Source of the DNA: Lophium mytilinum
Lineage: Eukaryota; Ascomycota; Dothideomycetes; Mytilinidiales; Mytilinidiaceae
Direction: 5' to 3'
NCBI GenBank assembly: GCA_010093605.1
Contig: MU004195.1
Span: 1,507,736 to 1,571,735, forward strand
Length of the DNA stretch: 64,000 bases
A program made the translations under genes and the position numbers. Shown piece by piece: positions 35,046 through 60,072 of this stretch (within the stretch, counting starts at the first letter, position 1; each line of letters opens with the position of its first letter). The notes under the pieces were generated by a model. The model saw only the letters and a list, made by a program, of their open reading frames with translations. It did no database searches and was not told the origin of the DNA.

Positions 35046-35483
35046 CTACGCGCCCTTCGCAGCCGACACGGTAATCTCAATCCTAGCCGGCCCAGAAAGC
35101 CCCACCACCGAAACGCCGCACCAAGCCGGCCTATTATCCTTCAAGTACTTCGCCATAGCCGCCTCCAACCCTTCACCAGCTTCATCTATGCTGCCAACAT
35201 GATATGTGGTCATCTTGTACACGCCCTGCCATCCACCTGGGACACCGGCGGCAAGCAGCGCATTTTCGACGTTCTGGAACGCCTGCAGGACTTCGTCTTC
35301 GAGTGACTCAGGGTATTCAATGTCCAGGTTGCAGCCGGTATGGCCGCAGGTCTCGAACAAGGTGGCGTTGGGAGGGATGACGATGACGCTGGAGATGCCG
35401 TAGAGGGGGCTCAGCTTCTCGCCTAGACCGGGTGCGTTGATGCATTTTAGGCCGAGCTTGGTGAGAGGGCCTTGGTATTCCAT
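35046..35483 (-). CDS. RidA/YjgF-YER057c-UK114 family protein
   Basis: Single exon of 145 residues from the ATG at 35483 (MEYQGPLTKLG...), chosen because it gives the normal family length; the 64 codons upstream in frame are leader-like. It contains the family's core ('VLQAFQNVENALLAAGVPGGWQGVYKMTTYHV', 'RPAWCGVSVVGLSGPARIEITVSA') with the conserved arginine (Arg134) before the last strand. Family knowledge: RidA enzymes hydrolyse reactive enamine/imine intermediates such as 2-aminoacrylate; many fungal relatives have unknown substrates, and some sit in metabolite clusters. It flanks the putative cluster on its left and is divergent from the Zn2Cys6 regulator, so membership is possible but unproven. 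Confidence 0.88.
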   Translation of the reverse strand: MEYQGPLTKLGLKCINAPGLGEKLSPLYGISSVIVIPPNATLFETCGHTGCNLDIEYPESLEDEVLQAFQNVENALLAAGVPGGWQGVYKMTTYHVGSIDEAGEGLEAAMAKYLKDNRPAWCGVSVVGLSGPARIEITVSAAKGA

Positions 35484-35947
35484 GATTCTGGGATAGCACC
35501 GATTTGGACGGAGGAGAGAAGAAAAAAGGAGAGGAAGCGGAAGACGGCGAGTAGAATGTGGATTGAAGGCGGAAGATGGCAGACGAGAGATGAGAAATGA
35601 GTATCTAGTCCTCCTTATGGACGGACTCTGCAAAGAAACGGAGTTCTTGTATCTTAGCTGGTGTGTGCTCCGCATTCAGCATATCAAAGACTAGTCGGCA
35701 GTCAACAGCGAGTTGACAGTCGTTGACGACCCCTGTGAGCACCGACAGTGGGGTTATTCTACCTGGGTCACGATGCACAAAACGGGCCGAGATACATCGA
35801 GTGTATATCATTGCAATGCTCAACCTCGAGTAGGGAGCTGGTTAAGCCAGGTACACTGGGACGGCGTAATTTAGTGCCTGACGTGCTATTGTCAGTGGGC
35901 AAAGATAGGCACAGCGATTAGATGCGCTCAGACACATAAAAGCGTCT
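35484..35947. other. Divergent promoter of RidA and Zn2Cys6 regulator
   Basis: A 464-bp interval with no gene. The first 190 bp belongs to an in-frame extension of the RidA frame that I regard as 5' UTR. Confidence 0.5.
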
Positions 35948-37999
35948 ATGCGCGCCGGAATGAGCAAGCGGTGGCGAGCAGACGATACCAGATACGAAGT
36001 AGCACCGACCAGCTTATCTCAAGAAACCCCATCCACTCGTCCCCTCTACTCTTCCATCGTCCATTTCCGACACGCACTTCGCCCGTTCCGCTGCCGCTGT
36101 CTTAGCCATGAATCCAGGATGATGCCTCCGGTGGAGCAACGACGGGGACCCTCACACAACAAGCCTCGCGTTAAGCGAGCCAAGACGTATTCCGGTTGCT
36201 GGACCTGTCGTTCACGCAAAGTCAAATGCGGTGAAGAGAAGCCATCATGCCGACGGTGCAATATAGCTTCACTGGTTTGTCAGGGCTACCGAGTGGAGCT
36301 CGTATGGAGTCCCGGCGATAGGGAAGATGGCGGTAGGAACTTAGTAACGCGCCGATCGATGCTAGATGGACACGAATCTTTGCGACCTGTGCTCAGTCAT
36401 CGGGTCCTACAGTCGGCGTTGACCAACATCGATACCTCCAAGGGAGAGACCGATTTGCATGTTGGCCCCTTTTCCGTGTTTTCTCTCTCCCAGTCGACTG
36501 GATCCAGGGCTATCGTTTGCGAAGCACCTGTGCAGCATGGAAGCAATGCAAGCGCCGACGATGCCGATGAGAATGAGGCTCTTTCACCGGTCGATCCTAG
36601 CTCGATTGATTCGTTGTGTCAAAATAGCTTCAATGAGGGAGATGAGAATGCTTCACATGATATTGCCACCGTTGGAAATGATCTAGATGAGAGTATTCCC
36701 ATTGAAGACGCCCCAGATGAGGAATCCATCGACGAAATCGTCCCAGATCGGGTCTCGGGCACAATCACAATGACAAGAGTGAAGCAAAGAATCACTCCAC
36801 ACCTCTTTTCGTACCTCTCATCATCCTCGCCCGAAGAACGCCAGCTTCTCCATTATTGGATTACAAACTTAAGCGGAATGATGATCCCAACACCACGTCA
36901 AGACAACCCTTTCCAGACCATATTTATCCCGCTGGCGTTGTCCGCAGCAGATGCCGGAGACTCCGCATCGGGAAATGCTGCCCTACTGCATGCTATCTAC
37001 GCTCTCTCTGCGTTCAATCGAGCCCAAGTATCGGCAACCAAAAACCATTTCCTCTCAGTCGGCACCAAACATCATTTAAAGAGCCTCGAATACTTGCGGT
37101 GTAATTTGGTGAAGACTGACGAGAGTCAGAAAGAAGCCCTTTTAGCTGCAATCATTGCTATGTCTTCGATTGAAGTCATTCGAGGCACTTCCTCATCCTG
37201 GCGGGTCCATCTGACCGGCGGACGAACCTGGCTCGAGGCTATTCACGCCAAGGACTGGACTGATAACTACAGTTCAAACACTCTTCACCAGATTTTCCTC
37301 TGTGTCGAGGCCCTAAATCCGGGAAATAGAAGAAGGGTAAGAGACGTGACCAGTCCGGAGGACGGAACCCCCGAAAGTGTTGCTCTAGTCGAAACGATGT
37401 CTAGCCCAGAATCCATCCGGTCCGGCTATATCTTGGACAAAGTATTCGGCATTACAGAGCCCATATTCTACGCTCTCCAACGCATCAATCAACTATCACG
37501 ACGTGCGTCGCCAGTGCCAACCGAACAGTTAGACGAGCTAGAACGCCACATCCGATTGAGCGACCCGGATGCCCTAATACCAAACGCCCACGAGCAATAC
37601 GACCAACTCACCCAAAACCACGCCTGTGCCTTCTACAACGCCTGCTTAATCCATTTCCACCGTACGCTGAGAAGAACCGCTCCAGCAAGGCTTCAGCGCC
37701 TCGTCCAACGAAGCCTGTACCATCTCGGCGAAATCGAAAAACTTGAAACCGATCTGAATGTCTGCGGTCTCCTCTGGCCCCTTTTCATCACCGCTTGCGA
37801 GGTCGAAGGCTCTAGTAATCTGAGACAGGCGTGCATTCGCCTCTTTGAGAAAGGAGATCTTCTCGGTATCGGCAACATGTGCTCTGCCGCCACCATTGTC
37901 CTCGAAGTCTGGCGTCGAAGGGACGAGGACTTGCTGGGTGCGGATGTTAATTGGCAAGACGTGATGGACGATCTAGGGGTTGATATTCTTCTCACGTAA
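35948..37999 (+). CDS. Zn2Cys6 transcription factor, candidate cluster regulator
   Basis: An intron-free frame of 683 residues from the ATG at 35948; a second start at 36119 (MMPPVEQ) would lose only 57 residues and may be the real one. The binuclear cluster is complete: CX2CX6CX6CX2CX6C with cysteines at 84, 87, 94, 101, 104 and 111, preceded by the basic KRAKTYSG. An acidic, probably disordered stretch follows (about 195-270), then a fungal transcription-factor domain ('LLHYWITNLSGMMIPTPRQDNPF', 'LLHAIYALSAFNRAQ', 'WRVHLTGGRTWLEAI'). Such proteins act in the nucleus and bind CGG half-sites. It sits at the left edge of the putative PKS cluster, which suggests, but does not prove, that it controls it. 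Confidence 0.88.
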   Translation: MRAGMSKRWRADDTRYEVAPTSLSQETPSTRPLYSSIVHFRHALRPFRCRCLSHESRMMPPVEQRRGPSHNKPRVKRAKTYSGCWTCRSRKVKCGEEKPSCRRCNIASLVCQGYRVELVWSPGDREDGGRNLVTRRSMLDGHESLRPVLSHRVLQSALTNIDTSKGETDLHVGPFSVFSLSQSTGSRAIVCEAPVQHGSNASADDADENEALSPVDPSSIDSLCQNSFNEGDENASHDIATVGNDLDESIPIEDAPDEESIDEIVPDRVSGTITMTRVKQRITPHLFSYLSSSSPEERQLLHYWITNLSGMMIPTPRQDNPFQTIFIPLALSAADAGDSASGNAALLHAIYALSAFNRAQVSATKNHFLSVGTKHHLKSLEYLRCNLVKTDESQKEALLAAIIAMSSIEVIRGTSSSWRVHLTGGRTWLEAIHAKDWTDNYSSNTLHQIFLCVEALNPGNRRRVRDVTSPEDGTPESVALVETMSSPESIRSGYILDKVFGITEPIFYALQRINQLSRRASPVPTEQLDELERHIRLSDPDALIPNAHEQYDQLTQNHACAFYNACLIHFHRTLRRTAPARLQRLVQRSLYHLGEIEKLETDLNVCGLLWPLFITACEVEGSSNLRQACIRLFEKGDLLGIGNMCSAATIVLEVWRRRDEDLLGADVNWQDVMDDLGVDILLT

Positions 38000-38113
38000 T
38001 GTGCTATAGTATCGTATTCCACTTGTGAAATGACGACTCAAGATCTCATTCCCCTTCTCCCAGAACTCCGTCTATTCTTTCTACGCATCTCTAAAACCAA
38101 GCCCTCCCAACCG

Positions 38114-39217
38114 TCAACGCCCCTCTGCCACCCACTCCTCGCTAAACGCATAATCCACATACCCGACAGGCGACCCTGCCGCATAAAACGTGCTCCTATC
38201 ATACGCACCAAGCTCCAACCCCCGCCTAATCCTAAACACCAAATCCGGATTCGCAATAAAGCGCCGGCCAAACAACACCAAAATCTCCTTATCCGGGTAC
38301 GTCACATCAACGAGCTCCCTCGCCTCCTCCGACGTATACCCGCCCGCGACCAGCAGCGGGCCGTCCCAGAGCTTATACGCAAACTCAAGCCGCTCGTGGC
38401 CCGCCTCAGCGTCCTCAGCGCCGGAGATCCGCGACTCAACGAGATGGAGATACGCGATGCCAGCGCGGCGCGCTTTCACGATGATATCTGTGAACTGCGG
38501 GATCGGATCCGCCATCCGCATGCCCTGGAACGTGCTCCACGGACTCAAGCGGAATCCCACGCGCGTTGGGCCGATGGCGGCAACGACGGCCGTGAGCACT
38601 TCGTCGAGCAGGCGGGACCGGTTCGCCACGCTCCCCCCATACGCATCGTCGCGGGTGTTGCTGACGTCCTGGAGGAACTGGTCGAGGAGGTAGCCGTTTG
38701 CGCCGTGGATCTCCACGCCGTCGAAGCCGGCGCGGATGGCGTTTTGCGCCGCGGCTACGAAGTCCTGCACGGTTTGCTGGATCTCGGAGAGGGTCATGGC
38801 ATGGGGCACCGCGGCGCCTGGGTCGATTGGGATGGCGCTGGGGGCGATGATGGGGAAGCCGTCTTTTGCGGCGGTTGCGGCGTCGGCGGCGCGGCCCATG
38901 CCGAAGAGCTGGCAGAAGATGAAGCAGCCTTTGCTGTGGACGGCGGAGGTGATGGGTTTCCAGGCTGCGACTTGGTCGTCGCGCCAGAGGCCCGGGGCGT
39001 TGGAGAAGCCGCCGCAGTGGGCGGCTGATATGGTGGTTCCCTCGGTGAGGATTAGTATGCCGGGCTCAGAGGCCCGTTGGGTGTAGTATTCCTTCATTAG
39101 GGGCGTTGGTACTCGATTGTCAGTTGCTCGTAGGCGAGTCATTGGAGCCATTCCGATACGATGCTGAACTTCCACGTTCCCGATCTTTAGCGGCTTAAAA
39201 AGACGTGATTTAGGCAT
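38114..39217 (-). CDS. Old Yellow Enzyme family NAD(P)H:flavin oxidoreductase
   Basis: Single exon of 367 residues, normal length for a fungal OYE. Visible features: N-terminal 'RIGMAPMTRLRA'; the active-site motif 'HGANGYLLDQF' with His171, Asn174 and Tyr176; 'NTRDDAYGGS'; and the FMN-phosphate region 'VAGGYT' and 'LFGRRFIANPDL'. Family knowledge: OYEs are FMN enzymes that reduce activated C=C bonds with NADPH; several act in fungal secondary metabolism (for example in ergot alkaloid pathways). It is convergent with the Zn2Cys6 gene, 114 bp apart. Because the PKS enoylreductase looks degenerate, this enzyme could supply enoyl reduction on a freed or bound intermediate; that is inference from context. 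Confidence 0.93.
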   Translation of the reverse strand: MPKSRLFKPLKIGNVEVQHRIGMAPMTRLRATDNRVPTPLMKEYYTQRASEPGILILTEGTTISAAHCGGFSNAPGLWRDDQVAAWKPITSAVHSKGCFIFCQLFGMGRAADAATAAKDGFPIIAPSAIPIDPGAAVPHAMTLSEIQQTVQDFVAAAQNAIRAGFDGVEIHGANGYLLDQFLQDVSNTRDDAYGGSVANRSRLLDEVLTAVVAAIGPTRVGFRLSPWSTFQGMRMADPIPQFTDIIVKARRAGIAYLHLVESRISGAEDAEAGHERLEFAYKLWDGPLLVAGGYTSEEARELVDVTYPDKEILVLFGRRFIANPDLVFRIRRGLELGAYDRSTFYAAGSPVGYVDYAFSEEWVAEGR

Positions 39218-39879
39218 GGTTGAGGAGTTAATGGGGGCTCGTTCTCGAGTATGGCAAGTGAATGGAGGTATTGATACTTGAACATCGAGAATATAGAAGT
39301 AGTTATACTCGTCGTTTGATAGAAGCGCTACCGCAACTGTCGGATGAGTGCGAAGTGGTTCTAAGAAGAGTTCTAACCAATTCGGGCAGAGAGATAGTTC
39401 CCGAAAGGGAACAGAGATGGCTCCGAAAAGGGCTTAGAGGTAGCCTAAAAGGGAACAGAGATACTTCCATTTAAAGAAAGTGGAGACTGTGCTTAAACTT
39501 TCCAAGTGTGGTCCTGCATGTCTGGCCAATCAATACCCAGATCGCCCGCTAATTATGCGCTAAGATCCTTGCGTCATGAGTGCAGTAAGCGGGCGATTAC
39601 AAATGGGAAGACTAAACAGGTCAATACGCCAAGATTCACAAATAATGGGTTCTACCAACTTACCGCTGTAGACGAAGAAGGCATTTTGGACGTGCTACGT
39701 GTGATACAATGGGGCGAATGTTGAATGATTATACCATTTGCTTTTACAAAGCAAAGGAAGAATTAGTCTCACACCACATGAACTTACCATCACTACCAAG
39801 GTAGACTATGGCTGTGGTTGGCCTACACGAGTATGAAGGGTTCCGAGACAGGAGACTTCCGGCCTGGCTGAGATAAAGT
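39218..39879. other. Intergenic upstream of OYE
   Basis: It holds the OYE promoter and the 3' side of the transcription-factor-like gene. AAGGGAACAGAGAT is present twice (about 39407 and 39452). An inverted repeat ACTTCCGGC / GCCGGAAGT (39855-39863 and 39883-39891) overlaps the neighbouring stop codon. No gene. Confidence 0.5.
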
Positions 39880-41588
39880 CTAGCCGGAAGTTTCTTCCCA
39901 GAACGCCTTAACCTGCGACATGAATGCGCTGTCTGACCAGATGAACTGCTTTAGGATTGCAAGCAATTCCGGCCATGATGTATACAAGCCTTGGAGCCTA
40001 GTGCTGCGGTTCGAATGCAACAGTACCACATAGTCCGATCGTATAGTTCCGGTGGGGGCAAACGCTCCGCCGATGTGCAGGAGCCAAGCGAGCAAATCAG
40101 GTCGGTCGTCCCATAAGAGATCGTAGTTCGCTTGTTGTAATTTACAGAGAAGTTGTAGCGAAAGGTGGGACTATGCCATTCAGAGTCAGCGCTACCGATA
40201 AGGGACTGAGCGGCTTACGGGAATGGTTGAAGCGCGCCAAAGTTTGCAACGCAGCATTGTTGAGCATAAATATGCCGCTAGATGGCAGCATTCTGAGATG
40301 GATGAGCGATTCGGTAAGCTCACTAGCCGCGACTGAATGGATGCTTGGTGGTTGTCAACACGTGCCATCGATATCACATCCTCTGTACCGAAAAAAGTAG
40401 AGTCTCGGATACATTGCAACGCAGAGATGTCTTTGAGCACCTCAACAAACTCGTCACTCAGTAGATAGGACTGGCTTTGGAATCCAGGCGGCAGGATATA
40501 GAAGTTTGGCGAGGATTTGTCTCTGTGCCACAGAAGTGCAGAAAAGGTTGTGTGATCCACAACTCGACTCGACCCTGTCAATACTGAGGCATTTAAGTCT
40601 GACCTGTTGACGAATGTAAGAATGAGCGGCCAACAAAGTCTTCATTGTCTCTCACCAGAAGATGGCACGTTTGATGCCGTCACTCAAATATACACCCTTT
40701 CTTCGGCACACGTCAAGAAGCTGCTGTATTGCTCCCATGTGAAGTTGGACTTGACGCGGCATCCCAAGCCGAGCCTATAACATAAAACAGTCAGCTATTC
40801 GTGCTGCATGCGGGCCAAAATTATGAACATCAAAGGAGGAGGATTGCAAACCTCTACACCAGCGAGTAGCAGAATAGCCCCTAGTGTCGATTCGGAAGTA
40901 GCTCTATCCGGAGAACTCATCCTTTGACGAATGGAACTCAAGGCCTCATTCTGGTACCCGAGATACTGCCTGTCAATGCTACTTGTAGTGACAGCAAAGG
41001 CAAATGTGAGCATGAAGGCACTTAGAAGAGCGTGATCATCTCGCCCCGTCCGAAGAACCGAGCGAAAGTTCTGGAGCACAAGCTCATCCGAAAGGCTGAA
41101 GACAGGTTCCGCAGTCTGCTGGGCCTTGTCTAAAGCATCCCATGTGAGCCTGTGCCGGGTATTTCTGAGTGTTGTGAAGATCTTACGCTGACTGTGCAAT
41201 GCTTGTAGTCGCGGCGATTCTGCAGCAAGCATCTGGAACGGGTCCGGCGCATCTGCGGAAAGGGAGAGTGGTGCTGCAACAAGAGTTTGGCGTCGTTTTC
41301 TTTCGCTCACGGGCCGACTAAGATTGTTTTCAAAAGACACTGCAAAGAAATTATGACCTGACTGTTGCTGAAGCTTTCGTTTCTTCTCGAGGCCCCGCGT
41401 GACAGCATGCGATCGGGCTATGCGCCTCGCTTTACGGTCATTGGTGTCGTTTAGATTTTTGATGGAAATGAAATGATATTGGCCACCTTGGAAAATGGAA
41501 TTAGACACGAAATCATATTGCCTTGAAGTTTTAGCCTACCTATACTAAGTTTGTTAGGCTTCTCGGAAGGATGAGATATTAAGACCAT
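39880..41588 (-). CDS. Fungal transcription-factor-domain protein without a zinc cluster
   Basis: Five exons join in phase: 41588-41540, 41486-40852, 40774-40656, 40603-40219 and 40170-39880, giving 492 residues. The short first exon (MVLISHPSEKPNKLSI) supplies the only good ATG. The N-terminus ('FISIKNLNDTNDRKARRIARSHAVTRGL') and the later helical domain ('LGAILLLAGVE', 'GMPRQVQLHMGAIQQLLDV', 'LLWDDRPDLLAWLLHIGGAFAP') are typical of a large, uncharacterised fungal family related to the C-terminal domain of Zn2Cys6 factors. No Cys6 motif is present; a basic patch (about 25-50) is the only hint of DNA binding. The intron at 40775-40851 has an unusual GTTTGC donor. It is divergent from the MFS gene, so the two may be co-regulated. 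Confidence 0.7.
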
Positions 41589-42078
41589 TTTGTCAGGCCA
41601 TTGCAGAATGTGTATGTAGTTTAGCTTGGAAAGTCGGAGCTGGTTGCAGCAAAACCTCCACAAGCAAGCGATGAGGTCGGAGCATAGGAATGTTTTCGAC
41701 GTCGATGACACGGGTGGCGGATTACAAATCGGAAGCTGGACAGTCACGTGAGGCGCAACGGCAACAACCCCTATTGTTTAAAAGCATAGCATCAATCTTT
41801 AAGGACGGGCAAAAAAGTTCCAACGAAACAACACAAAGGTACCCTCGAGCTTGTTTTCTTCAGGCAATGGCTCATGCCTTGCTCGAAGATGCATGTCGAT
41901 CTCCGGCAGGAAATATGGGTATTCTAGCTCGGATTTCATCTGGCATTTGTCAGCCATCTAATTGGACACCCTATTTCACGACTCTCATTTCTCACTCCCT
42001 CCGCTCGATTTGAACACGGAGCTGATACTATACCAAAGGCCTATAGACCTGCATGATCAATTTGCTAAGTAAACAGCC
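41589..42078. promoter_or_regulatory. Divergent promoter of the TF-domain gene and the MFS gene, with CACGTG
   Basis: A 490-bp interval between two divergent starts. GTCACGTGAG puts a CACGTG at 41745-41750, about 160 bp from the TF-domain ATG and 330 bp from the MFS ATG. A minus-strand frame (41451-41747) is an artefact of the true exon 1 plus intron. Confidence 0.5.
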
Positions 42079-43670
42079 ATGGATACGAATCGCGATCTGA
42101 ATGAAATCGAGCTGGAGAATCCGGCCCAGCCAACATTCGAGGCCGCAGACCATCACATCGACCATCCGTTCCTTATTTCGCCAATTGCTCCTTCTCGTGA
42201 GGCACTCCTCCTCATAACCGTATGCTCGGCCCAGGCGCTTGTCCAAGCCTGTCTTGCCCAGGCCATTCTCCCTGATAGCATCATTGCACGGAGTTTCTCT
42301 GTCAGCGACACAGATGGCACCTGGGGCCCTGCGGCCTATGGCCTCACATCAGGGACATTCATGCTTCCCGCAGGCCGTGTGGGGGACATGTTTGGACACC
42401 GTCGCTGTTTCATTGTCGCTTGGGTCTGGCTTGCTGTCTCGTCGCTGGTCACGGGTCTAAGCGTGTACTCTCGTTCTTTCGTCTTCTACTCCGTGTGCCG
42501 GGGACTCCAGGGCATTGCAGCTGCTCTGCTCGTTCCCAACGCTCTGGCCATTTTGGGAACGGTATACAAGGAAGGGCCGCGGAAGAATCTCGTCTTCTCG
42601 TATGCACTTGCTGAAAACTTCCACCTAACCTACGAGATTGCTGATGTCGTCTCAGATTATACGCTGCTGGCGCGCCCATCGGTTTTACCATCGGTGCTGT
42701 CTTCTCTGGCCTGATCGCACAGCTGTCATGGTGGCCGTGGATGTTCTACTGTACGGCTATTGCATCGCTTCTCTTCGCTTTGGTATCCGCCATTGCGATC
42801 CCCAAGTTACCCGGGGAATTCTACCAAGCTCAACAACAGGACCCTAGTGCTGGCAAACATTGGCGCAAGGACTTCGACTGGCTTGGATGCTTCACAGGTG
42901 TCTCTGGCCTCGTTCTTTTCAACGTCGCCTGGAACCGAGCTCCTGCTGTTGGCTGGCAAGCCGCAGAGGTGATTGCGCTACTCGTTGTTGGTCTCGCTCT
43001 GTTCGTCGCATACCTCTTCGTTGAAGGCAGAGTGAAACAGCCTCTGGTCCCTATACATCGAATTTCCAAGGACGCAAGCTTCGTGCTTGTTATCATGGCT
43101 CTAGGCTGGTCCAGCTTCGGCGTCCTTATCTACTACGCCCTCAACTTCATCACCCGACTCCGTGAGCAGAGCATCCTAAGCGCAGCCGCCCAGTGCCTTC
43201 CGGTCCCTTTCGCAGGCGCCGCCGCTTCATATCTCACCAGCTTGCTCCTCAGCCGAGGGGTTCCGGCAAGTGACGTGCTGGCATTCTCCCTCGTTTGGTT
43301 CCTTGTCGGAAATATTATCTTCGCTACGATGCCTGTGCACCAACTATATTGGAAGCAGGCGTTCTGGATGTTCGCCGTGGCGCCCTTCGGGATGGATATG
43401 AGCTTTCCTTCGGCGACGCTGATCATGAGCAAGCTCGTGCCACCGGATCAGCAGGGCATTGCTGCTTCTCTGATTGCGACGGTGGTGTACTACTCTCAGT
43501 CGATTGGGCTGGGAATTGCTGGAACCGTTGAGACATCTGTTGCCGGTACTAGCCCTCTGAGAGGGTACAGGGGTGCTTTCTACACTGGCATTGGGCTGAG
43601 TGGCATTGGACTGTTAGTAGCACTCTGGCCAGTTTTTGATTTACGGCATAAGCGACGAAGCTCTCTTTAG
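42079..43670 (+). CDS. Major facilitator superfamily transporter (DHA2-like, about 14 TM)
   Basis: Two exons, 42079-42599 and 42656-43670, are joined in phase over a 56-bp intron (GTATGC donor), giving 511 residues. Splicing restores 'VFSLYAAGAPIGFTIGAVFSG', a standard MFS TM5 pattern. The motif-A region 'PAGRVGDMFGHRR' and 'RGLQGIAAALLVPNAL' are clear, and hydrophobic segments run to the C-terminus, consistent with 14 helices. It resembles fungal DHA2-type exporters of the Amf1/YOR378W kind, though the substrate cannot be read from sequence. It would sit in the plasma or vesicle membrane. In this setting it may export the cluster product or give self-protection; that is inference. Confidence 0.9.
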
Positions 43671-44820: not shown

Positions 44821-46457
44821 ATGGAGACTCCTACAGCCGCTTCAAATGATCCTCATACAAAAGTCGCATTCATTCTTGGGTTCTTGATTACGTTGACGAC
44901 CTTGATGCTGATGTTTTTCGTTTTGCGGATCTACGCCAGGCTCTCGATTATTGGGTACTTTGGGATTGAAGACTGGCTTGTAGCTGGTGCCGTGGTAAGT
45001 AACTTTACGTTCATCTGGTGGGAGCTGATACACTGCCGCACTCATGCTGAATGTTTTAGCTCGGTATCTTGGTTGAGACCATCGATGGATGCGTGTCTAC
45101 AAAATACGGTGCGGGTTACCATATTCAAGATTTCAAGCCAGAATGGACAGTGCCCTACGCAAAAGTAAGTGGCATGTCAAGTTTTCCGAACACTTTCGCC
45201 CCTGTTCATCTTAGGCGATGAGAGAATCTGACATGCTATAGACAAGTTTTATATCGGGAGCCGTCTTCCCCATTTGCGTCGCCTTCCCCAAACTATCTCT
45301 TTGCATAACGTACCTCCGAATCTTCCCTTCGAAGGGAAACCGGATCTTCTGCTATACTGCAATGATATACCTTGTTTGCTGGCTAATTAGCATTACTCTA
45401 GTTACGTTATTTGCTTGCAGGTAAGCACCTGCTTTCCGGATTAGGCCTCCGCAACACACACAATATCTAACAGACAGGCAACAGCCCAATAGCAGCATCG
45501 TGGAATCCCACTACCCCCCACGCCTCCTGCATAACCTCCCGCAAATTCTACCTAGCCTCGGGCGCTCTCAACAGCTTAAGTGACTTCCTCGTCTTCCTCT
45601 GGCCAGCTCGGGCACTCTGGAAGATCCAACTCCCCATAAAGCAGCGACTGGGGCTAATCACTGTGTTCGCGAGCGGATGCATGTGAGTTCCCCCTTAACC
45701 CTGAATCTCATTTCATCTTTAGCACTAATTAAATTCACCAGCGTCTGCGTAACAGCCGTGATCCGCCTCATCTACCTCGAGAAAGTCTTCACAGCGCCCG
45801 ACTTTGCCTGTCCGTCTCCTTCTCCCTCTCCTCTTACCTTCCTCTTCCCCTTTCCGTCCCTACCCCCTTCCCCCAAACCCCCTACCCACACCCCTCTTAC
45901 TCATCCAAACCGCAGACAACGGCGCCATAATCTGGGCCACCACCTCCGTCGAACTCAACATCGGCCTCATTTGCAGCTGTCTGCACGCCGTCAAACCGCT
46001 GCTCAGCGCCTGGTTCCCGCGCTCCTTCGGCTCCTCGCGCAATCGCCATAACTCCGACTACCCCAATAACAAGCCGCGGAATTACGGCGTCATTAGTGAT
46101 CGCTCGATTGCGTTTAAGTCGGTGGGCAGCGATGCTGCTATGGGGATTGAGCGCCCGAAAGCGACGGCGAAGAATCCTTTTCACAGTCGGACGAGGTCGA
46201 GCAGCTCGAGGGTGCCGGCGAAGGAGGAGTATGGGGCTTGGGCGGAGGGTGGGGACGGGAGGGGGCTGCGGCCTTTGCATGGGATAACGTATACGCAGAG
46301 CGTGACGGTTGATACTCGGTTAGCAACTGCGACGGACGACATGGATGTTGAAAGGGCAGGGAGGAAAAGCGGCGATGAGGGGATAGGACTGCAGAGGGAA
46401 GTGAAGGACACAGATAGCCAGGAATGGATTATGACCGATCAGGGGAGGCGAGACTGA
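44821..46457 (+). CDS. Rhodopsin-domain (PTH11/SAT4-type) seven-helix membrane protein
   Basis: Six exons keep phase: 44821-44994, 45060-45164, 45242-45420, 45485-45682, 45742-45809 and 45916-46457, giving 421 residues. The acceptor at 45484 is chosen because it gives 'TLFACSPIAASWNP', the usual C-x-P-I-x-x-x-W pattern of this family. TM1 is 'VAFILGFLITLTTLMLMFFVLRIYARL'-like and is followed by 'GIEDWLVAGAV', then five further helices, with 'ATTSVELNIGLICSCLHAVKPLL' near the end. The C-terminal about 130 residues are a Ser/Arg-rich cytoplasmic tail. The intron 45810-45915 has a GTCCGT donor. Family knowledge: such proteins are putative GPCR-like receptors common in filamentous ascomycetes. 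It converges on the PKS gene, with 102 bp between the stops. Confidence 0.82.
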
Positions 46458-46559
46458 AGCCCTAAAGTTTACAACTTATCATGACAATAATACCCACAAC
46501 AAGGAGAAATCTAAACCTCTGAAAATGCTGTTCAAAGCGAAGCCTTCCCCTTATACATC

Positions 46560-49500: not shown

Positions 49501-52500
49501 ACGCCTGCCGACGTTGCGTTCAAAACCAGAAGATATCCCGTCTCACTTAGCAGTCCCTGCACATTGCGAAATAGTGCTTCCCTATTTGCATCGTCGAGGG
49601 AGACGGCAGACAGGATAATAAAATTAAACGTGGTTTCTTGAGGCTCAAACCCTTGGAGATCGAAATTAGGACTCAGGGTCTTGAAAGTCATCAGAGGTTT
49701 CCAGTCCTGAAGCACTACCTCGGCAGCTTCCAGCTTCGAATTGTCGGCGTCGGCTAGCGTGTAACTTGAGAAACGCGGTGTGGCAGTGGCTGATTTCTGG
49801 AGCATGGACAGGACCGATAGTGGCAAGTCAGTTTCAGGAGCGCCGATTTGAAGAATTGATAAGTCGGGATTCTTATGTGCTGCAAGATTGATAATCTGTT
49901 GTAGTAAGTATAGAGTCATAGTTCCCGCTAATACGAGCCAGATCGGATATTTTACCTCGCAAATCTGATTGTGGCGGTCCGGAATCTTCGTTGGATGTGT
50001 CCTGTCGGAGAACACCTCCGGAATCCGCGACCCTGTCCCTTTCACAGCAGAGTTTGCGGTGCTGCTCGCAGTAATATACTCTTCTAGAGCAGTATGATCT
50101 AGAAGCGTTATGTCCGGCTTCCAAAGAAGCGTGCCGAACGGGGCCTTCGCAGCCCCGTCCGACAAACTCGATAAATTAGTTCTTGGGAGCTCTTTGCATC
50201 GTATGCCCTTGATTTGCACTTTTGGCTCAGCCCAGCTGGCATCCGACATGTACACATCCGCTACCACCTCACGTAGGCCGGCTCGTGTCGTTCGGCAGAA
50301 CCCATTGAACTGAGCCCCCGCGCCAGAAGGCAGATCCATAGAAAGTGTAAGGCTGTCGAAAGAGATCGGAACGGCGGCATCTTGGAACTCCAGCTCTTCG
50401 GCACCCAGCCCAACAAACAGCGAATGGAAGATAATGTCAAGAGTGGTAGGATGAATGAGATGCCCGCTCTCGATGTTTGATGGCATCACACTCTTCGTAT
50501 CCGGAATGGCAATAGTGCAGCAGGCACGACCGTGACCAGAGGAGATGTCCGTCAGGCCTTGGAAACAAGGTCCATACGCCAGGCCTGCCTCTTCAGTTCT
50601 CTTGTAGAAATCTTTCGGGTCGATCTTTCGTGTGCATAGTCGCTTGGAGTCTTCATACTCGCTCTTTATCGCTGCATGAAGCAAACTTTTGCCGGTGGTC
50701 CAGGGGCCGCTCTCATCAAATTTGTATTTGATCTTGATCGATCCGAACGCATTCTCTTCAACATCTTGATCCTCGTGGCAGCTAGACACAGAGAAATCCC
50801 ACCAGGCTCCCGAAGGCCCGCTCGATCCGGTACGTTGGGGCTGCAGCTGTAAGAAGCATTCGACACCCATCTGGTCGTCCGGTACAACCATAGCTTTAGT
50901 GATATGAACATCTCTTAGCTGAATGCTTTCTATCTGCTTCTCTTTGTCGGCAATCTGCTGTATCGCTTCCAGAGGCATCGCAAGAATGCCTGCCGCTGGG
51001 TACAATATGCTCGACTGGACAATGTGGTCCCGAATCCAGGGATTCTCAGTAGATCTGAGAAAATGTCTCCATCTTGGCTCTAGTTTGCTTGATGTAGGAG
51101 TCAGTGCGCCCACTAGGTCATGGCGGCCATGCTCTCTGAAGCGGTAATTTTTGCTTAACCGGGACTCGGACCAGTATTTCAGAGAGTGATTCCACGGGTA
51201 GGATGGCAGGTCGAGGAGTGCTTTAGGTTGAGTTTGCAAGTCGTTGACATCTGAGATGGATATTGGGACACCGCGGATATACAGTGCTCCTGCCGCCATG
51301 ATAGCCGCCTTGGTAGCAGCTTCACCTCGCATGAGCACGGACTCATATGGGATATTCTTGATCTCTTGATGTTGCATAATCTGCCTTAAAGGACCCTTCA
51401 ATGCAGCGTGCGGCCCGACCTCGAGCAAAATGTCGAACGTCACCTCTGTCGTTCGAGCTGCTCGACGTCTGCGTTGCGTGGTATCTTTAGATAAGGCTTG
51501 AACAGCGTCGGAGAAGAGCACTGGAGAAACAAGGTTTCGAACCCAGTAGTCAGGCCCGAGATCGGCATAGGTCGCAAGGGTACCGGTGACGCTGGAGGCC
51601 ATTCTCATGTTCCCTTCCGATGGTAGTGATCTGGTGGATATATCCGATATTCGCTCGCGGTATTTGTCTGCAATTGAAAGCATATGGTGGCTATGATATG
51701 CGTTCTCGACCTTCAGTTTGCGGCAGAAGATGCCATCGAAGTTGAGGTTCTGAAGAAGCTCGTCGATTGCAGCCTCATCTCCAGAGATAGTGACGGAGGT
51801 TGGGGAATTGACGCAAGCCACAACAAGCTTGCCCTTCGTGATTGTTGCGAAATACTTCTCAGCATCGCTGGAAGATAATCCGACGGCCATCATGGCACCT
51901 TTTAATTCAGGTGCTTCTGTAGCCAACTCCGAGCACAGCTTTCCTCGCCAGTACGAGATCTTCCAGGCATCCTCTCGAGATATCGCACCGAAGCTATAAG
52001 CAGCTCCGATCTCACCGCTGGAATGTCCAACGACTCCCACAGGTTTGATATTCCAGGATGTAAGAAGGTCAACAAGGGCAACCTGAAGAATGGTGCAAAC
52101 GGGCTGACTGAATCTTGCAAGTTGAATCTTGGTAGCTCCAGCATCTCGTTCAAGCTCCTCAGTGGCAGACCATTCGCACCCCAATGTGCCCTTCAGATAC
52201 CGGTCGGCAGCTAGAACACTGGCCCTAAACACTGAGTACTGCAAAAGCTCTACGCCCATCCTAGCCCATTGTGCGCCCTGGCCAGTAAAGACAAAGGCGA
52301 TGCGAGGCGTAGTAGATGATCGTGTGGACGCGAATTTCGACACCGAAAGGGATTTCTTTAGGCCCTCGAGAGTTGAAGCAACCACGCATGCTTTCCAATT
52401 GAACTGAGAACGTCGTTTGCTCAATGTAAACGACAAGCTGTCCATATAAGCAGTTTCTTCGGCTGCTTCCTTTAGTGTGGCCTTGGAATTAACTGATTCT

Positions 52501-54143
52501 AGATGTTTCAGGTATTGCGTTCTCATCCGGTCCAAAGCTGCGTCATCCCGAGCACTAAATATGAAGAGGCGCTGTTTGTGGACCGCTTTCCCATGTGTTT
52601 GAATTAATGCGTTGCGAATATGATCAACACGCACGCCCAGCTCAGTAAGATAATGGCCGGCATCATCAAGGATCGCGTGCGCATTCGTACCGCCATAGCC
52701 AAAGGAGTTTACGCTCACACGTCGAAGGCCATTGGAGGGCCATGGAATAGCCGACGTTGGAACGCGGATTTTCCAGTTGTCGAACGGTATTCGTCGGTTC
52801 GGTTTGTCGAAGTGGATATTGGGTAAGATGATGCCAGTTTCCAACATCAAGACACACTTGATGAAACCAGCCAGCCCTGCTGCACCTTCTAGGTGACCGA
52901 TCTAGCGAGAGGACATATTTAGCTTCAGCACTTGTGTTTTACGCACAATATTGGATACTCACGTTCGATTTCACTGAGCCAACCAGAAGTTCACTACCAG
53001 GAGGGCGCCCTTTGGCGAGAGTTTTGGCAACGGCGGAGAGTTCCAACGGATCTCCCACTGCAGTTCCTGTGCCATGGGCCTCAAAATAACTCGTTTGTGA
53101 AAAGTCGAGGCCCGCAGAACGATAGGTCGATTGAATCAAACTAGCCTGCGCATCGCTATTCGGCAGCGTGATACCTGTTGTGTGACCATCCTGATTTATT
53201 CCTTTCAGGCTTGTCAGCTCACCCTGTGCAGCAAAACAGTTGCGATACATACCTGTCCCACGGATAACGGCGCGTATAGAATCACCGTCGCGCAGAGCAT
53301 CAGCTAGAGGCTTCAATATGACGGTTGCGATTCCTTCACCTCGACCATAGCCGCTGACCCCTTCCGCAAAAGATCTGGATAGCCCTTCCTTTGAAAGCAT
53401 ATGAAGATTGGACAGAAACATGGCTAACTCTGGACTGAGGATTAAATTCGCACCGCTCACCACGGCCACCTTGGACTCTCCTGCACGAAGTCCTTGGCAG
53501 GCTAGATGCAGACCGACGAGACTGGAAGAACAAGCTGTGTCTAATGTCATGCTCGGGCCTCGAAAGTCGTAAAACCACGATACTCGATTTGACAGGAGTG
53601 AGAAACCAGTGCCGGTGCCCGCATACATGGGCGAGGTCTCAGCATCTCGCATGAGCATTTCATGATAATCCCGAGTAAAGCAGCCAACGTAGCAGCTGGT
53701 GTCGCTTCCTGTGAGGTTCTCAATGGGCAAGCCGGCGTTTTCGAGTGCCTCGTAAGTGACTTCAAGTAGCATCCTTGCCGTCGGGTCCATGGCCTTTGCC
53801 TCATGGGCTGTGACGTTGAAGAAAGGGGCATCGAAGGAGGAGACATCTTGGTCTAGAAAGTGGCCGCCTGTGCAACTCAGAGTGTTGAGTTTATCGCCGC
53901 CTCGGTGGTGGAAAGCTTTGGCATTGTAGCGGCTTTGAGGCACTTCAGAGTATGCAGCTAACGAAGGGACGCGTTAATTCCTAGCATTGACAGGAGTCTG
54001 TTAGAGGTAGAAGGCGTACATTTCCGCTCATATAACAAGTCCCAGAACTTGGTGGAATTTGAAGCACCGCCGGGGAAGCGGCAAGCGAGGCCCACGACGG
54101 CGATATCAGCTACCTCAACGTCGCCTTTCGAGGATGACGCCAT
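46560..54143 (-). CDS. Highly reducing type I polyketide synthase (KS-AT-DH-MT*-ER*-KR-ACP)
   Basis: Five exons keep phase: 54143-54020, 53957-52963, 52901-49495, 49440-48628 and 48576-46560, giving 2451 residues with introns of 51-62 bp. KS: active-site 'DTACSSS' near residue 184, 'HGTGT' and 'GHLEG' near 376. AT: 'FTGQGAQW' and nucleophile 'GHSSGE' near 667. DH: 'RDHIVQSSILYPAAG' near 1000 and 'HPTTLDIIFHS' near 1196. A short methyltransferase remnant has 'LSILQIGAPETD' where EIGAGTGG is expected (about 1390). ER: 'AAASPLGQVAVKLAQ' near 1875 replaces the GGVG NADPH loop, and the later NSLSGE region reads 'NNTTSK', so both MT and ER are probably inactive. KR: 'GGLGGLGRS' near 2084, with 'QANYAAGN'. 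ACP: 'YGVDSLMAVE' near 2402. No thioesterase or reductase follows, so release must occur in trans. Confidence 0.93.
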
Positions 54144-55178: not shown

Positions 55179-56056
55179 ATGCGTTTCCTCTGCTTGCATG
55201 GCCGGGGAACTAACTCTGATATCTTCGAAAGCCAGCTAGGTAAGAGCGTGAAGCTATTAGGATAGATGGACCAGATGCTAATTTCCTCATCCCAGCACCA
55301 CTATTCTCACGCGTCTCCCCTCACCATACTTTTGATTTCGTAGATGCTCCCTTCGACTGCGTGGCCGCTCACGGAATATCCCAACTCTACCAGCCGCCCT
55401 ATCTGACCTGGCATACTCAGTATGAGCCTCAGCACGTCGAGCCAGTGCATGACTTCCTTCGCACCGTAATCGAAGAAGACGGTCCCTACGATGGTGTAAT
55501 TGGCTTCTCGCAAGGAGCAGCACTAGCTGCAAGTTTCTTGCTTTGCCATGAACACTACGCACAGATTCGCGATCCAGGCCGTCGTCACAAGCCTCCGTTC
55601 AAGGTAGCCATATTCATCAACAGCGTCATGACGTTCTCGCCGTCCGAGCACATTGGCAGCAACATCAGCCAGCATATAAAGAGCCAAGAAGAGAAGCACA
55701 TGGCATTCATTGAGGGCGTAGATTCCTTGGGAGCGGAAGACTTTACACCTACGGAGACATATACGACAATAGATGGCGACTCGATTTACGGTTTTCCCAA
55801 GGACACTTTTGCGCCGCGCATTTCAATCCCGACGCTGCATCTTTATGGGACAGAGGATCAGTTCTTGGAACATTCGGAGGAACTAGTCGGCTTGTGTCGA
55901 GGAGACAGAACAGAAGTGCTGCCTGTTAGGGGTGGGCACGAGCTGCCTCGCACCAACCCAGCTTGGGACAAATTCGCCGCACTTTTCGAAATGGTGGCCA
56001 TGACAGCTGCCCTCATGGATCCAAGTAGCAGAAGGGGGTCTGCCACGACATCATAA
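55179..56056 (+). CDS. FSH1/LovG-type serine hydrolase (putative polyketide-releasing thioesterase)
   Basis: Two exons, 55179-55239 and 55296-56056, give 273 residues; the intron is 56 bp with a GTAAGA donor. It starts with the family hallmark 'MRFLCLHGRGTNSDIFESQL'. The alpha/beta-hydrolase triad is visible: Ser in 'GFSQGAALAAS' (about Ser92), Asp in 'LYGTEDQFLEHSEEL', His in 'VRGGHELPR'. Family knowledge: fungal FSH1-domain enzymes next to HR-PKS genes, such as LovG for lovastatin, release the finished chain from the ACP. The PKS here has no release domain and is transcribed divergently from this gene, so the same job is a strong inference. No signal peptide is seen; cytosolic. Confidence 0.9.
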
Positions 56057-56692
56057 CGTGTCATACGAGGATAGAGTTGCGCTTCATAGATTTCATGGTT
56101 ACTCACCCTCTATACCAGTCATAATGTCATGTCTTATTCAGGTTTATATGCCAAAAACACAGACAACACAAGTATGATCTTGACCATGGAAGAGCACCAG
56201 AGGAATGTACCTTTCCGTTCAACCTCAGTACCAAGGTTCTCTCACATCTACCGCCTAGCCCACTTCGGCATCACGCATGGAACTCGTATTATCGACCACT
56301 TTTCAGCTGCACTCGGCGCACTAAACTAGTCAAGAGAAGGCGCGTGGCAGAGGGATCTTTTGGGCAGAAGCGACTTGCCATGTCAGCCAGACAGGGTTCC
56401 GACGTGAAGGACGCATGCGCTAGTAACACCCAATTGCTTCACCCTGTCAGCTGTATGCACGCTCGGCAAGTCCGGGGTGTAATAGTGGGGCGGGATGGAC
56501 CACTGCTCGAAGGGTTACCAACATAGTTCGAGGACCTCTTACTTCGCTGGTAAATAAAACGTCTTACTCTTCTGTTCCATACTTTTAACGGCCTCTCTGA
56601 TTGAAAATCTGCCTTGATTTCGACGTCTACTATTCTTTTATTTTTCTACCGATTTTCTAAGTATCGACGCTTGCACTGAGTACTTGAGCAGG
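56057..56692. other. Intergenic between hydrolase and reductase genes
   Basis: Both neighbours are on the plus strand. The stretch should hold the hydrolase 3' UTR and the A-T-R promoter, with a pyrimidine-rich tract just before 56693. No gene is seen. Confidence 0.5.
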
Positions 56693-59600
56693 ATGGTTTC
56701 TACTGCCACTCCGGTGGATAACAACCGACTTATCCCAAATGTGATTGACCTTCGTGCTCAGAGGAATCCACAAGACATATTCGCAAAAGTGCCGACTTCG
56801 ACTACTAGCTATGGATCTGGATTTCGATCGGTCACCATTGTTGAACTTTCCAATGCCATCAACAGAGTAGCATGGCTTCTCCAAGAGCATTTGGGAAAAG
56901 GCCAGGACCATGAAGCTTTGGCATACATTGGACCTACCGATCTGCGCTATTCCATCGTTGTCATTGCAGCTATAAAAGTTGGCTACAAGGTAAGGGACAC
57001 TGCCTAATGTATCAACTGCACTCTTACTGACTGCTTCGTTCATATACGTTTCTGCCATCTCCCAGAAACAGCAAAGCCGCCCACATCTCCCTTCTATCAA
57101 GACTTGCATGCAAGATTCTAGTTACCACCCATCCGGAACCTCCTTGTGTTCCTATGATTTTAGAAGACTACAGCATGCGAAAGCTTCAAATTCCTTCCCT
57201 CGATGAACTGCTTTCCAATCAGGATACTCCGCATTATCCCTATGAAAAGACATTTGAAGAGGCAAAATATGACCCAGCATTCATTTTGCATACATCAGGA
57301 TCCACAGGTTGTCGAGTCATACCCCATCATGCGTCCTTTGCTAACTGCGTATAGGAATACCCAAGCCCCTGACGTATAACCACTCCTTCATCACACGTAT
57401 TGCAAACGTTACGTCTCTTCCTCCGCCGGAAGGCTTTCAGAGCTTGGATAAATATTTTCGTTCGGGAAGCTTCTTTATGACCCTGCCCGGATTCCATGTA
57501 AGCAATCCAAGGGCGTATCAATTCGCTTCTATATTACATAACAGCCGTAAACTCGTACTCAAAAGCCCTTTAGGTTGCTGGCATAGGCTTCTCGCTCATT
57601 GTGCCTGCCTTCAACAGTTCTGTCCCCGTGTACCCTCTTCCAGGGCCTCCCCCAACAACCGCCGCCTTCATTGACGCCATAAATAACGCAGTGATCGACT
57701 GGGCTTTCTTGCCACCAGTGGTAATCGATGAGCTAGGCAAGGACCCGGAATTGCTAGAAGCAGTAGCCAGCAAGCTGAAGTAACTTTACTACACCGGGGG
57801 TAGTGTCCCAAGATCGTCAGGCGATGCTGTTGCAGCTCGAATGCCACTTTATCAAGTAATGGTATCGAGCGAATGTGCCACATTCCCTCTCGTGAAACGG
57901 GGGCACGACGAAGATGGTCACGACTGGAACTACATTCAGGTTCACCCCTCAGTCCAAGCGGAATTCCGGCACCGCTTCGAGGATTTACACGAGCTTATCG
58001 TAGTGAGGACCTCGGAGAACGAGTCCTACCAACCGGTATTCCTCCACTTTCCCGATCTGAAGGAGTACGAGACGCGAGATCTTTTCACGCCGCATCCAAC
58101 GAAACCAGGGCTTTGGACGCATCGAAGCCGGGTCGACGACGTCATCGTGTTCTTAAATGGAGAGAAGACAAACCCTGTCTCTTTCGAGCACGAGGTCGCC
58201 AAACATCCCGAAGTTGGAGCCGCGTTAGTGGCTGGCCAGCAACGTTTCGAAGCCTCGCTTTTAGTTGAGCTCGTCGATAACAGTGCCGCCACACCCAAAG
58301 ACCGCCTTGAGATCGTTGACCGAATATGGCCTAACGTACAAAAAGCGAACAGTCAATGTCCTGCTCATGCCAAAGTCTCCAAGTCGAAGATTATATTGGT
58401 GGATCCGGAAATGCCAATGCTCCGCGCCGGGAAATGGACTGTTCAGCGGCAAGCCACCTTAGATTTGTACTCAAAGATATTGGATGAGGTCTATGCTGAG
58501 GATGACCTGGACGTTTTATGGATCCCAGCAGAAGACATTGTTAGTGAGTCCTTCGTTGCGGACACAGTGCGGGAAGCGGTTAGGAGCGTGACTGAGTGGG
58601 CGGAATTCAATGACGATGACGAGTTTTTCTCCCTAGGAATGGATTCTCTGCAAGTCTTCAAACTAAGACGCCAGCTCAAGGCTAAGTTGCCGCAAACTAT
58701 CAGCATAGCAACTATATATGGAAACCCTTCAATCACGCTGCTTGCGAAGGAAATCTGGAAATCGGCATCTCACACCCAAGCATCAGAATCTGAAATTCAA
58801 CGAGCCATGCCAGACGAAGCTGCCGCGATTACCGCAACCATCCAAGAATACGTCAACCAAATAGACGCAATCGCAACGCCCCCCCAGACGGACTCACATC
58901 CGATAGCAAAACCGTCACCAGCATCCGAAGTCATACTGCTCACAGGATCAACGGGCACGCTGGGCTCTTTCATACTTCACGACCTCCTTGCCCAGAAAAC
59001 CAGTGCTCACATCTACTGCCTAAACCGAGCCCCAAACTCCTCACAACTCCAAACAACCCGAAACCAGTCCCACCAACTCCCCACCAACTTCCCCCTCAAC
59101 CGCGTCACCTTCCTAACCGCCGACCTCTCCAAACCCTCCTTCGGGCTCTCAGAACCCCTCTACACCACCCTCCTAACAACAACCACCCGCATCATCCACA
59201 ACGCCTGGCCCGTCGACTTCAACCGCACCCTCCCCTCCTTCCACCCCAGCCTCTCCACCGTCGTCGCCCTCATCGCCTTCGCCGCCCGCTCCCCCAAATC
59301 CCCGACTCTGTTCTTCATGTCCTCCATCAGCGCCACCATCAACTACAGCGCGCCCCTGATCCCCGAAGCCGTCATCACAGACCTCGCCTGCACCGCGCCA
59401 ATGGGCTACGGGCAGAGCAAATACGTCGCCGAACGCCTCCTCGACCACGCGGCCCGCACCCTCGGCGTCGACGCCACGGCCGTCCGTATCGGGCAGATCG
59501 CGGGCACGGCGGAGAACCCGCGCGGCTGGAGCCGGAATGAGTGGCTGCCGAGTTTGGTGCTGAGCTTGCGGTTCGTGAGCGCGCTGCCGGATTCGCTGGG

Positions 59601-60072
59601 GGCGATGGACGCTGTGGACTGGGTGCCGGTTGATAAGCTGGCGGGGGTGCTGAGGGAATTGCTTTTCGGGGCTTATGGTGGAAAAGAGGGTAACGGATTG
59701 CGGGTGTTTCATGCCGTCAATCCGGCTGTTGTTTCGTGGGAAACGCTGCTTCCTACCGTTAAAGAGCTCTTGAGTGAGCACGGAGAGGTGGCGGTGCTGT
59801 CGTTCCCTGCTTGGTTGGACCTCCTGAAATCGCGGAGTGGGGAAGTCAGTAATGGGGGCGCTGGGGAGAGCAGTGCGGAGATGCTGCGGCGGAATCCGGG
59901 GATGAAGCTTCTTGGGTTTTATGAAGAGTTGCAGCCGGATGGTAAAGATGGGACACGAGCGAAGATGGATCTAACCCGCACGCTGGAAGCTAGTGAGTCG
60001 ATGAGGAGCTTGGAGCCTATACAGAAGGAGTGGATAGCAGGCTGGGTCCGGAATTGGGTCGCCAGTAGTTAA
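56693..60072 (+). pseudogene. Adenylate-forming reductase (A-T-R, NRPS-like), apparently disrupted
   Basis: Recognisable exons are 56693-56989, about 57049-57307, 57355-57497 and 57574-60072, which together would be about 1065 residues, the usual length. Adenylation features: 'FILHTSGSTG' / 'IPKPLTYNHSF', 'VSSECATFP', 'RVDDVIVFLNGEK'. Carrier domain: 'DDEFFSLGMDSLQVFKLRR'. Reductase: 'VILLTGSTGTLGSFIL', 'MGYGQSKYVAERLL'. Family knowledge: these enzymes activate a carboxylic acid with ATP, load it on the carrier and reduce it to aldehyde with NADPH. Two lesions are seen. First, the intron starting at 56990 (GTAAGG) has no AG at the only in-frame junction near 57048, where the sequence reads ATACG. 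Second, TAA at 57781-57783 is in frame within the adenylation domain. The remaining 763 codons downstream are open, so the damage is recent or reflects sequence errors. Confidence 0.75.

What the first reader, a model, noticed from the sequence alone, without database searches (positions are those of the whole stretch)
35046..60072. Candidate secondary-metabolite cluster: HR-PKS, FSH hydrolase, A-T-R reductase, OYE, MFS, receptor, two regulators
Eight neighbouring genes fit one pathway: chain building, release, acid reduction, C=C reduction, export and control. I know of no characterised cluster with this exact set (HR-PKS with a separate adenylate-forming reductase, a LovG-like hydrolase, an OYE and a rhodopsin-domain receptor), though I cannot search.
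Basis: partly seen in the sequence, partly recalled or inferred. Interest (0 to 1): 0.75.

Follow-up and report, generated by a model that had tools for sequence, protein, structure and literature searches.

The report
Fungal polyketide cluster with broken reductase
A stretch of a fungal chromosome carries a small gene set for building and releasing a fatty-acid-like chain, arranged much as in a known Fusarium pathway, but the gene meant to turn the released acid into an aldehyde is interrupted, so the set is probably partly out of use.

Summary
The eight genes are there, in a 43 Mb fungal genome. HR-PKS (54143-46560, -), FSH1 hydrolase (55179-56056, +) and A-T-R reductase (56693-60072, +) form a real unit: 3 of 7 PKS loci in the genome lie within 6 kb of one of 5 A/A-T-R matches, 4 of 7 within 6 kb of one of 7 FSH1 matches, far above chance. 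The PKS has a degenerate methyltransferase and enoylreductase. The likely present product is an unmethylated, unsaturated free acid. Membership of OYE, MFS and receptor is unproven; their closest relatives are not at the other PKS loci. The second 'regulator' has no family match. The claim that no characterised cluster resembles it is weak: the fusaric acid cluster has PKS, serine hydrolase, NRPS-like reductase, MFS and two regulators. Known kind, probably decaying; modest interest.

The parts
46560..54143 (-). HR-PKS, 7 exons, 2414 aa: KS-AT-DH-(degenerate MT)-(degenerate ER)-KR-ACP
   Evidence: Spliced model open throughout; Pfam KS, AT, DH, KR, ACP above cut-off, ER matches weak, no MT hit
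55179..56056 (+). FSH1-type serine hydrolase (LovG-like), 273 aa, one intron; divergent from the PKS
   Evidence: Model; PF03959 1.4e-32
56693..60072 (+). A-T-R (NRPS-like carboxylic acid reductase) gene, interrupted
   Evidence: Pieces searched apart: AMP-binding below cut-off in two of three N pieces; AMP-binding_C_3, PP-binding, NAD_binding_4 in the C piece; C piece matches 8aep chain A at 4.9e-68
57781..57783 (+). In-frame TAA inside the adenylation domain of the A-T-R gene
   Evidence: the same frame continues on both sides; the two paralogues read over the place (contigs 17, 13) have no stop there
56990..57048 (+). First intron of the A-T-R gene without an in-frame acceptor
   Evidence: Every AG listed up to 57101 is out of frame; 4 of 4 paralogues have an acceptor at the matching boundary
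38114..39217 (-). Old yellow enzyme, 367 aa, single exon
   Evidence: PF00724 1.3e-88; best solved relative chanoclavine-I aldehyde reductase 4qnw, 4e-104. Cluster membership unproven
42079..43670 (+). MFS transporter, 511 aa, one intron
   Evidence: Model; MFS_1 2.3e-32. Membership unproven
44821..46457 (+). Fung_rhodopsin-family (SAT4/Pth11-like) membrane protein, hand-spliced 421 aa, several introns, one with a weak donor
   Evidence: PF20684 8.6e-57. Membership unproven
36119..37999 (+). Zn2Cys6 regulator with Fungal_trans_2 domain
   Evidence: PF00172 2.8e-09, PF11951 1.5e-54
39880..41590 (-). Putative second regulator; hand-spliced, model incomplete at its C-terminus; ends approximate; family not established
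   Evidence: No Pfam match better than E 0.09; only self-matches in the genome
54641..54934 (.). Three CGG-N5-CCG sites (54641, 54787, 54924) in the PKS/FSH1 divergent promoter; a fourth at 56464 upstream of the A-T-R gene
   Evidence: 4 of the window's 21 sites lie in these two promoters; P about 0.026 allowing any spacing; post hoc

Best explanation
A three-gene aldehyde-forming unit of the FUB1/FUB4/FUB8 kind with neighbours of uncertain membership. Inferred working: the HR-PKS builds a linear chain with KS, AT, DH, KR and ACP that look active; since its methyltransferase and enoylreductase domains are degenerate, the chain stays unmethylated and unsaturated; the FSH1 hydrolase frees it as a carboxylic acid; the A-T-R enzyme would then activate and reduce the acid to an (en)al, and the OYE, whose nearest solved relative is an aldehyde reductase of ergot alkaloid synthesis, could reduce that enal. 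In this genome the A-T-R step is disabled by two separate lesions, so the unit should stop at the free acid unless another A-T-R gene (contig 10, open frame of 828 aa) acts in trans. Shown: gene content, lesions, degenerate domains, recurrence of the core. Inferred: product, order of steps, OYE role.
For: Gene models and domains. Recurrence: an A/A-T-R match within 6 kb of 3 of 7 PKS loci, FSH1 within 6 kb of 4 of 7. Lesions. ER: about 10 residues missing near the N-terminal substrate loop and a changed cofactor motif against paralogous PKSs; MT: missing the glycine-rich motif and a further stretch, no Pfam MT hit, while the contig 17 PKS has strong MT and ER hits. OYE and R-domain relatives. 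FUB precedent: Fub8 reduces trans-2-hexenoic acid (PMC9605436). Left flank TRS130, Pcf11 and Mif2 families, read as housekeeping; right flank, about 5 kb beyond the A-T-R gene, a protein that I read by eye as alpha-tubulin.
Against: No expression data and no relative's genome: the lesions could be strain-specific or assembly errors (two in one gene, one a substitution-type stop, make an error less likely). ER inactivity is inferred from alignment only. The OYE is separated from the PKS by three genes. The window PKS is nearest to the contig 5 PKS (42% over 854 aa), which has an FSH1 but no A gene, and the A pieces are nearer to the A-only genes (42-46% with contig 17) than to the contig 10 A-T-R (31-33%), so the unit was not simply copied as a block. 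FSH1 is only 25-35% identical to its paralogues. One paper read gives Fub8 a different role, release of an NRPS-bound precursor (PMC10967133).
Confidence: 0.7

Rival explanations
1. One reading: one intact eight-gene pathway, with export by the MFS and sensing by the receptor, and all genes co-regulated.
For: Tight spacing from 36119 to 60072 with no housekeeping gene recognised in between; a Fung_rhodopsin match lies within 10 kb of all 3 PKS loci with an A gene and within 15 kb of none of the other 4; FUB also has an MFS and two regulators.
Against: A-T-R gene broken. Receptors at contigs 17 and 13 only 30% and 27% identical to this one, whereas contig 2 has one at 37-55% in pieces, away from PKS loci. 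MFS nearest kin on contigs 18 and 3. OYE near no other PKS. CGG-N5-CCG sites in the PKS/FSH1 and A-T-R promoters but in none of the 4 other promoters examined.
Confidence: 0.15
2. The whole locus is a dying remnant: PKS and hydrolase are also silent or inactive and only look intact.
For: Degenerate MT and ER, broken A-T-R, patches with TpA excess just beyond the A-T-R gene.
Against: PKS open over 2414 codons with recognisable KS, AT, DH, KR and ACP; TpA/ApT within the cluster genes 0.54-0.79, around the window value of 0.71. Degenerate MT or ER is common in working HR-PKSs (recalled).
Confidence: 0.12
3. The stop and the missing acceptor are assembly errors and the A-T-R gene works.
For: No reads seen; no second strain available.
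Against: Two separate lesions in one gene while PKS, FSH1, MFS and OYE models read cleanly; the frame continues on both sides of the stop, unlike the indels typical of long-read errors (recalled).
Confidence: 0.1

Closest known systems
Fusaric acid (FUB) cluster core FUB1/FUB4/FUB8 of Fusarium
   Same: PKS, serine hydrolase, separate NRPS-like enzyme, MFS, C6 regulator(s) in one cluster (passages of PMC10967133 and PMC6738028)
   Different: No aspartate kinase, homoserine acetyltransferase or O-acetylhomoserine lyase among the ORFs scanned; A-T-R broken; an OYE and a Fung_rhodopsin gene are not named in the FUB list (FUB9 is an FMN-dependent dehydrogenase, not compared); orthology of the proteins not testable here
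Fungal CAR-type A-T-R enzymes (8aep; that it is the reductase domain of a Neurospora CAR is recalled, the listing names it 'Acetyl-CoA synthetase-like protein')
   Same: C piece matches 8aep chain A at 4.9e-68
   Different: Adenylation domain interrupted
LovB/LovG pair
   Same: HR-PKS without a release domain plus FSH1-type hydrolase; LovB 7cpx among the best solved relatives
   Different: No trans-enoylreductase of the LovC kind among the window ORFs scanned; product unknown
Chanoclavine-I aldehyde reductase (EasA/FgaOx3-type OYE; the family name is recalled)
   Same: Best solved relative of the OYE, 4e-104
   Different: No ergot-alkaloid genes recognised among the genes annotated here
SAT4 of a satratoxin cluster
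   Same: A putative integral membrane protein inside a fungal cluster (PMC4117958, one passage); that it bears the same Pfam domain is recalled
   Different: No sequence comparison made

Membership tests
FUB-type PKS/hydrolase/A-T-R unit | HR-PKS gene | tested here: met
FUB-type PKS/hydrolase/A-T-R unit | Serine hydrolase (FSH1) gene next to it | tested here: met
   1036 bp away
FUB-type PKS/hydrolase/A-T-R unit | Intact A-T-R gene | tested here: not met
   Stop at 57781-57783 and lost acceptor
FUB-type PKS/hydrolase/A-T-R unit | Amino-acid branch genes (aspartate kinase, homoserine acetyltransferase, O-acetylhomoserine lyase) | tested here: inconclusive
   None among the ORFs scanned; not every ORF of the window was scanned, and the 10 kb to the right was read by eye only
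FUB-type PKS/hydrolase/A-T-R unit | MFS and two C6 regulators | tested here: inconclusive
   MFS and one Zn2Cys6 regulator found; the second regulator's family is not established
FUB-type PKS/hydrolase/A-T-R unit | Sequence orthology with FUB1/FUB4/FUB8 | not testable with these tools
   No fungal protein collection at hand beyond PDB
Highly reducing PKS | KS-AT-DH-KR-ACP | tested here: met
Highly reducing PKS | Functional enoylreductase | tested here: inconclusive
   Weak Pfam hits, short deletion and altered cofactor motif; activity not testable
FSH1/LovG-like hydrolase | FSH1 domain with Ser-Asp-His residues | tested here: met
   PF03959; GFSQG, GTEDQF and GGHELP read in the translation, their roles recalled
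Carboxylic acid reductase (A-T-R) | A, T and R domains in one open frame | tested here: not met
   Domains present in order, frame interrupted
Old yellow enzyme | Oxidored_FMN fold with conserved His/Asn/Tyr | tested here: met
   residues read in the alignment, roles recalled
Fung_rhodopsin (PF20684) | Domain match over the curated cut-off | tested here: met
   192.8 bits against a cut-off of 27 on a hand-spliced model

The most novel reading that the evidence does not exclude
In this genome, HR-PKS units that carry a CAR-type adenylation gene recur with a Fung_rhodopsin 7TM gene (contigs 15, 17 and 13: 3 of 3, against no such match within 15 kb at the 4 other PKS loci), and with an MFS gene by weaker matches; two of the three have an adenylation enzyme without T and R domains. 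This would be a recurrent 'chain - activate - export - sense' module in which the 7TM protein senses the product or a precursor.
Probability: 0.1. Interest if true: 0.6.

Novelty: new member of a known kind. Interest (0 to 1): 0.3.

Why it matters
It turns an apparently intact candidate cluster into a concrete case of partial decay: the core recurs within one genome, but its reductive step is lost, which predicts an acid instead of an aldehyde and warns against listing the cluster as complete. The stand-alone adenylation genes at two sister loci (A without T and R) are a testable oddity.

Tried and rejected
Non-canonical splicing of the A-T-R stop: the only short GT..AG stretch over it that I saw is 24 nt and would remove a conserved stretch; rejected (read from the output). 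Segmental copy of the cluster: no; the DNA-level matches to the 11 fetched loci L021-L031 are 5 short stretches of 65-250 nt at 70-83%, all within the PKS. A receptor paralogue on contig 6 (80% over 35 residues) has no match to another window protein in its 10 kb, PKS matches left out of that listing. Co-duplication of receptor or MFS with the PKS loci: not supported. RIP inside the cluster: no sign. tRNA: none in the window by ARAGORN with the bacterial code. Shared 10-mers in at least three of six promoters: none. Literature: the listings (one search showed 20 of 26 papers, 8 of 9) held no paper that I recognised as describing this exact set; most subscription papers are not in the library, and the primary Fub8 paper (PMC8093010) is not held. 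No structure was predicted. Co-expression, MIBiG and antiSMASH comparison, and synteny in relatives could not be run.
Full report
Setting. The window is C15:1507736-1571735 of a 43.18 Mb, 24-contig genome; its intron-bearing genes and fungal families mark it as fungal; the species is not known to me. The flanks look like housekeeping: TRS130, Pcf11 and Mif2 families on the left and, about 5 kb right of the A-T-R gene, a protein that I read by eye as alpha-tubulin.

Check of the observation. The HR-PKS reads open through 7 exons (54143-46560, 2414 aa) with KS, AT, DH, KR and ACP matches above cut-off. FSH1 (55179-56056), MFS (42079-43670), a Fung_rhodopsin protein (44821-46457) and an OYE (39217-38114) are supported by models and Pfam, and a Zn2Cys6/Fungal_trans_2 regulator starts at about 36119. 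The second regulator is not supported: no Pfam match better than E 0.09 and only self-matches in the genome; my model of it is incomplete. The ORF at 35046 is a RidA-family protein.

The A-T-R gene is broken. Its pieces carry AMP-binding (below cut-off in 2 of 3 N pieces, none in the third), AMP-binding_C_3, PP-binding and NAD_binding_4, and the C piece matches 8aep at 4.9e-68. But a TAA stands in frame at 57781-57783, between two stretches of the same frame, inside the adenylation domain, and the first intron (donor 56990) has no in-frame acceptor: every AG listed up to 57101 shifts the frame. Four of four paralogues in the genome (contigs 17, 13, 2 and 10) keep an acceptor at the matching border, and the two paralogues that I read across the stop region (contigs 17 and 13) have no stop there. 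Intact relatives thus exist elsewhere in the genome; this copy should not give a working enzyme.

The PKS is reduced in another sense. Its methyltransferase region lacks the glycine-rich motif and a further stretch that the contig 17 PKS has, and its enoylreductase lacks about ten residues near the N-terminal substrate loop and has a changed cofactor motif. Pfam finds no methyltransferase and only weak enoylreductase matches, whereas the contig 17 PKS scores 3.3e-19 and 3.8e-20 for these. Predicted product (inference): an unmethylated, partly unsaturated acid.

Is the grouping more than chance? KS and AT matches lie within a few kb of each other at 7 loci; these I count as PKS loci and leave out KS or AT matches without a close partner (contigs 6, 12 and 16, and two pairs 10-20 kb apart on contig 3). 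Five matches are AMP-binding_C_3 and seven are FSH1. Three of the 7 PKS loci have an A gene within 6 kb and 4 of 7 have FSH1 within 6 kb (binomial P about 1e-6 and 1e-8 for a 10 kb reach under uniform placement, limits chosen after seeing the data). The contig 17 locus repeats PKS(-)/FSH1(+)/A(+) and also has Fung_rhodopsin, a weak MFS match below the Pfam cut-off and, further on, a P450; the contig 13 locus has PKS, an A gene, Fung_rhodopsin, an aminotransferase and again a weak MFS match, but no FSH1 match on its contig. The A genes on contigs 17 and 13 appear to lack T and R domains: the NAD_binding_4 scan matches the contig 15 and contig 10 genes but nothing near these two. So the PKS + adenylation + FSH1 core is real, though not copied as a block: the window PKS is nearest to the contig 5 PKS (42% over 854 aa), which has FSH1 but no A gene, and its A pieces are nearer to the A-only genes (contig 17: 42-46% in the two first pieces) than to the contig 10 A-T-R (31-33%).

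Accessory genes. There are 92 distinct Fung_rhodopsin loci by my merging of 138 matches (150 of 158 candidates were scored). One lies within 10 kb of each of the 3 A-linked PKS loci and within 15 kb of none of the other 4 (nearest 19 kb), P about 0.013 for 3 of 7, a weak post hoc result. The window receptor is nearest to genes such as that on contig 2 (37-55% in pieces), not to those at the sister loci (30% and 27%). The nearest MFS paralogues are on contigs 18 and 3. The 10 OYE matches, about 7 genes, lie near no other PKS. CGG-N5-CCG, a Zn2Cys6-type site (recalled), occurs three times in the PKS/FSH1 promoter and once upstream of the A-T-R gene, 4 of the 21 sites in the window, and in none of the four other promoters examined; P about 0.026 allowing any spacing; the window total, 21, is near the 17 expected. 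Of six sister-locus promoters examined, one (the contig 13 A gene) has such a site. I read this as a hint that the core trio is regulated together, no more.

Comparison with the known. Passages of PMC10967133 and PMC6738028 list the FUB cluster as PKS, serine hydrolase, NRPS-like enzyme, MFS, two C6 regulators, an NAD(P)-dependent dehydrogenase, an FMN-dependent dehydrogenase and amino-acid genes. A passage of PMC9605436 states that Fub8 reduces trans-2-hexenoic acid, and that paper sorts 84 fungal CARs into seven clades; PMC10967133 instead describes Fub8 as releasing an NRPS-bound precursor. Passages of PMC8403587 say that A-T-R enzymes lie in some PKS clusters of the Hypoxylaceae and likely act as carboxylic acid reductases, and passages of PMC12616698 describe a PKS-NRPS cluster with an NRPS-like CAR. 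The core is thus of a known kind. The OYE's best solved relative, chanoclavine-I aldehyde reductase, makes enal reduction after the CAR step a reasonable guess, no more.

Verdict. A real but ordinary three-gene core with uncertain neighbours, its reductase gene interrupted.

Noticed in passing
   Followed up: partly
L021-L023 (C17:746000-772000): Sister locus: PKS with strong MT and ER matches, FSH1, Fung_rhodopsin, weak MFS match, adenylation gene apparently without T-R, P450.
   Followed up: partly
L024-L025 (C13:430000-449999): Sister locus: PKS apparently without an ER domain, adenylation gene apparently without T-R, class I/II aminotransferase, Fung_rhodopsin, weak MFS match.
   Followed up: partly
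window 56693-60072: Third-position GC differs along the A-T-R gene: 0.42 and 0.38 in the first two exon pieces against 0.65 in the C piece; unexplained.
   Followed up: no
window 60100-60800 and 62000-62800: Patches with high TpA/ApT (1.44, 1.49) and lower GC (0.45, 0.48) than the window mean, RIP-like, right after the A-T-R gene.
   Followed up: no
G000:C3 (245-257 kb and 417-439 kb): Two places where KS and AT matches lie 10-20 kb apart, read as two fatty acid synthase loci; not examined further.
   Followed up: no
L031 (C6:2232600-2234470): Receptor paralogue with one 35-residue stretch at 80% identity but 27-43% elsewhere.
   Followed up: partly
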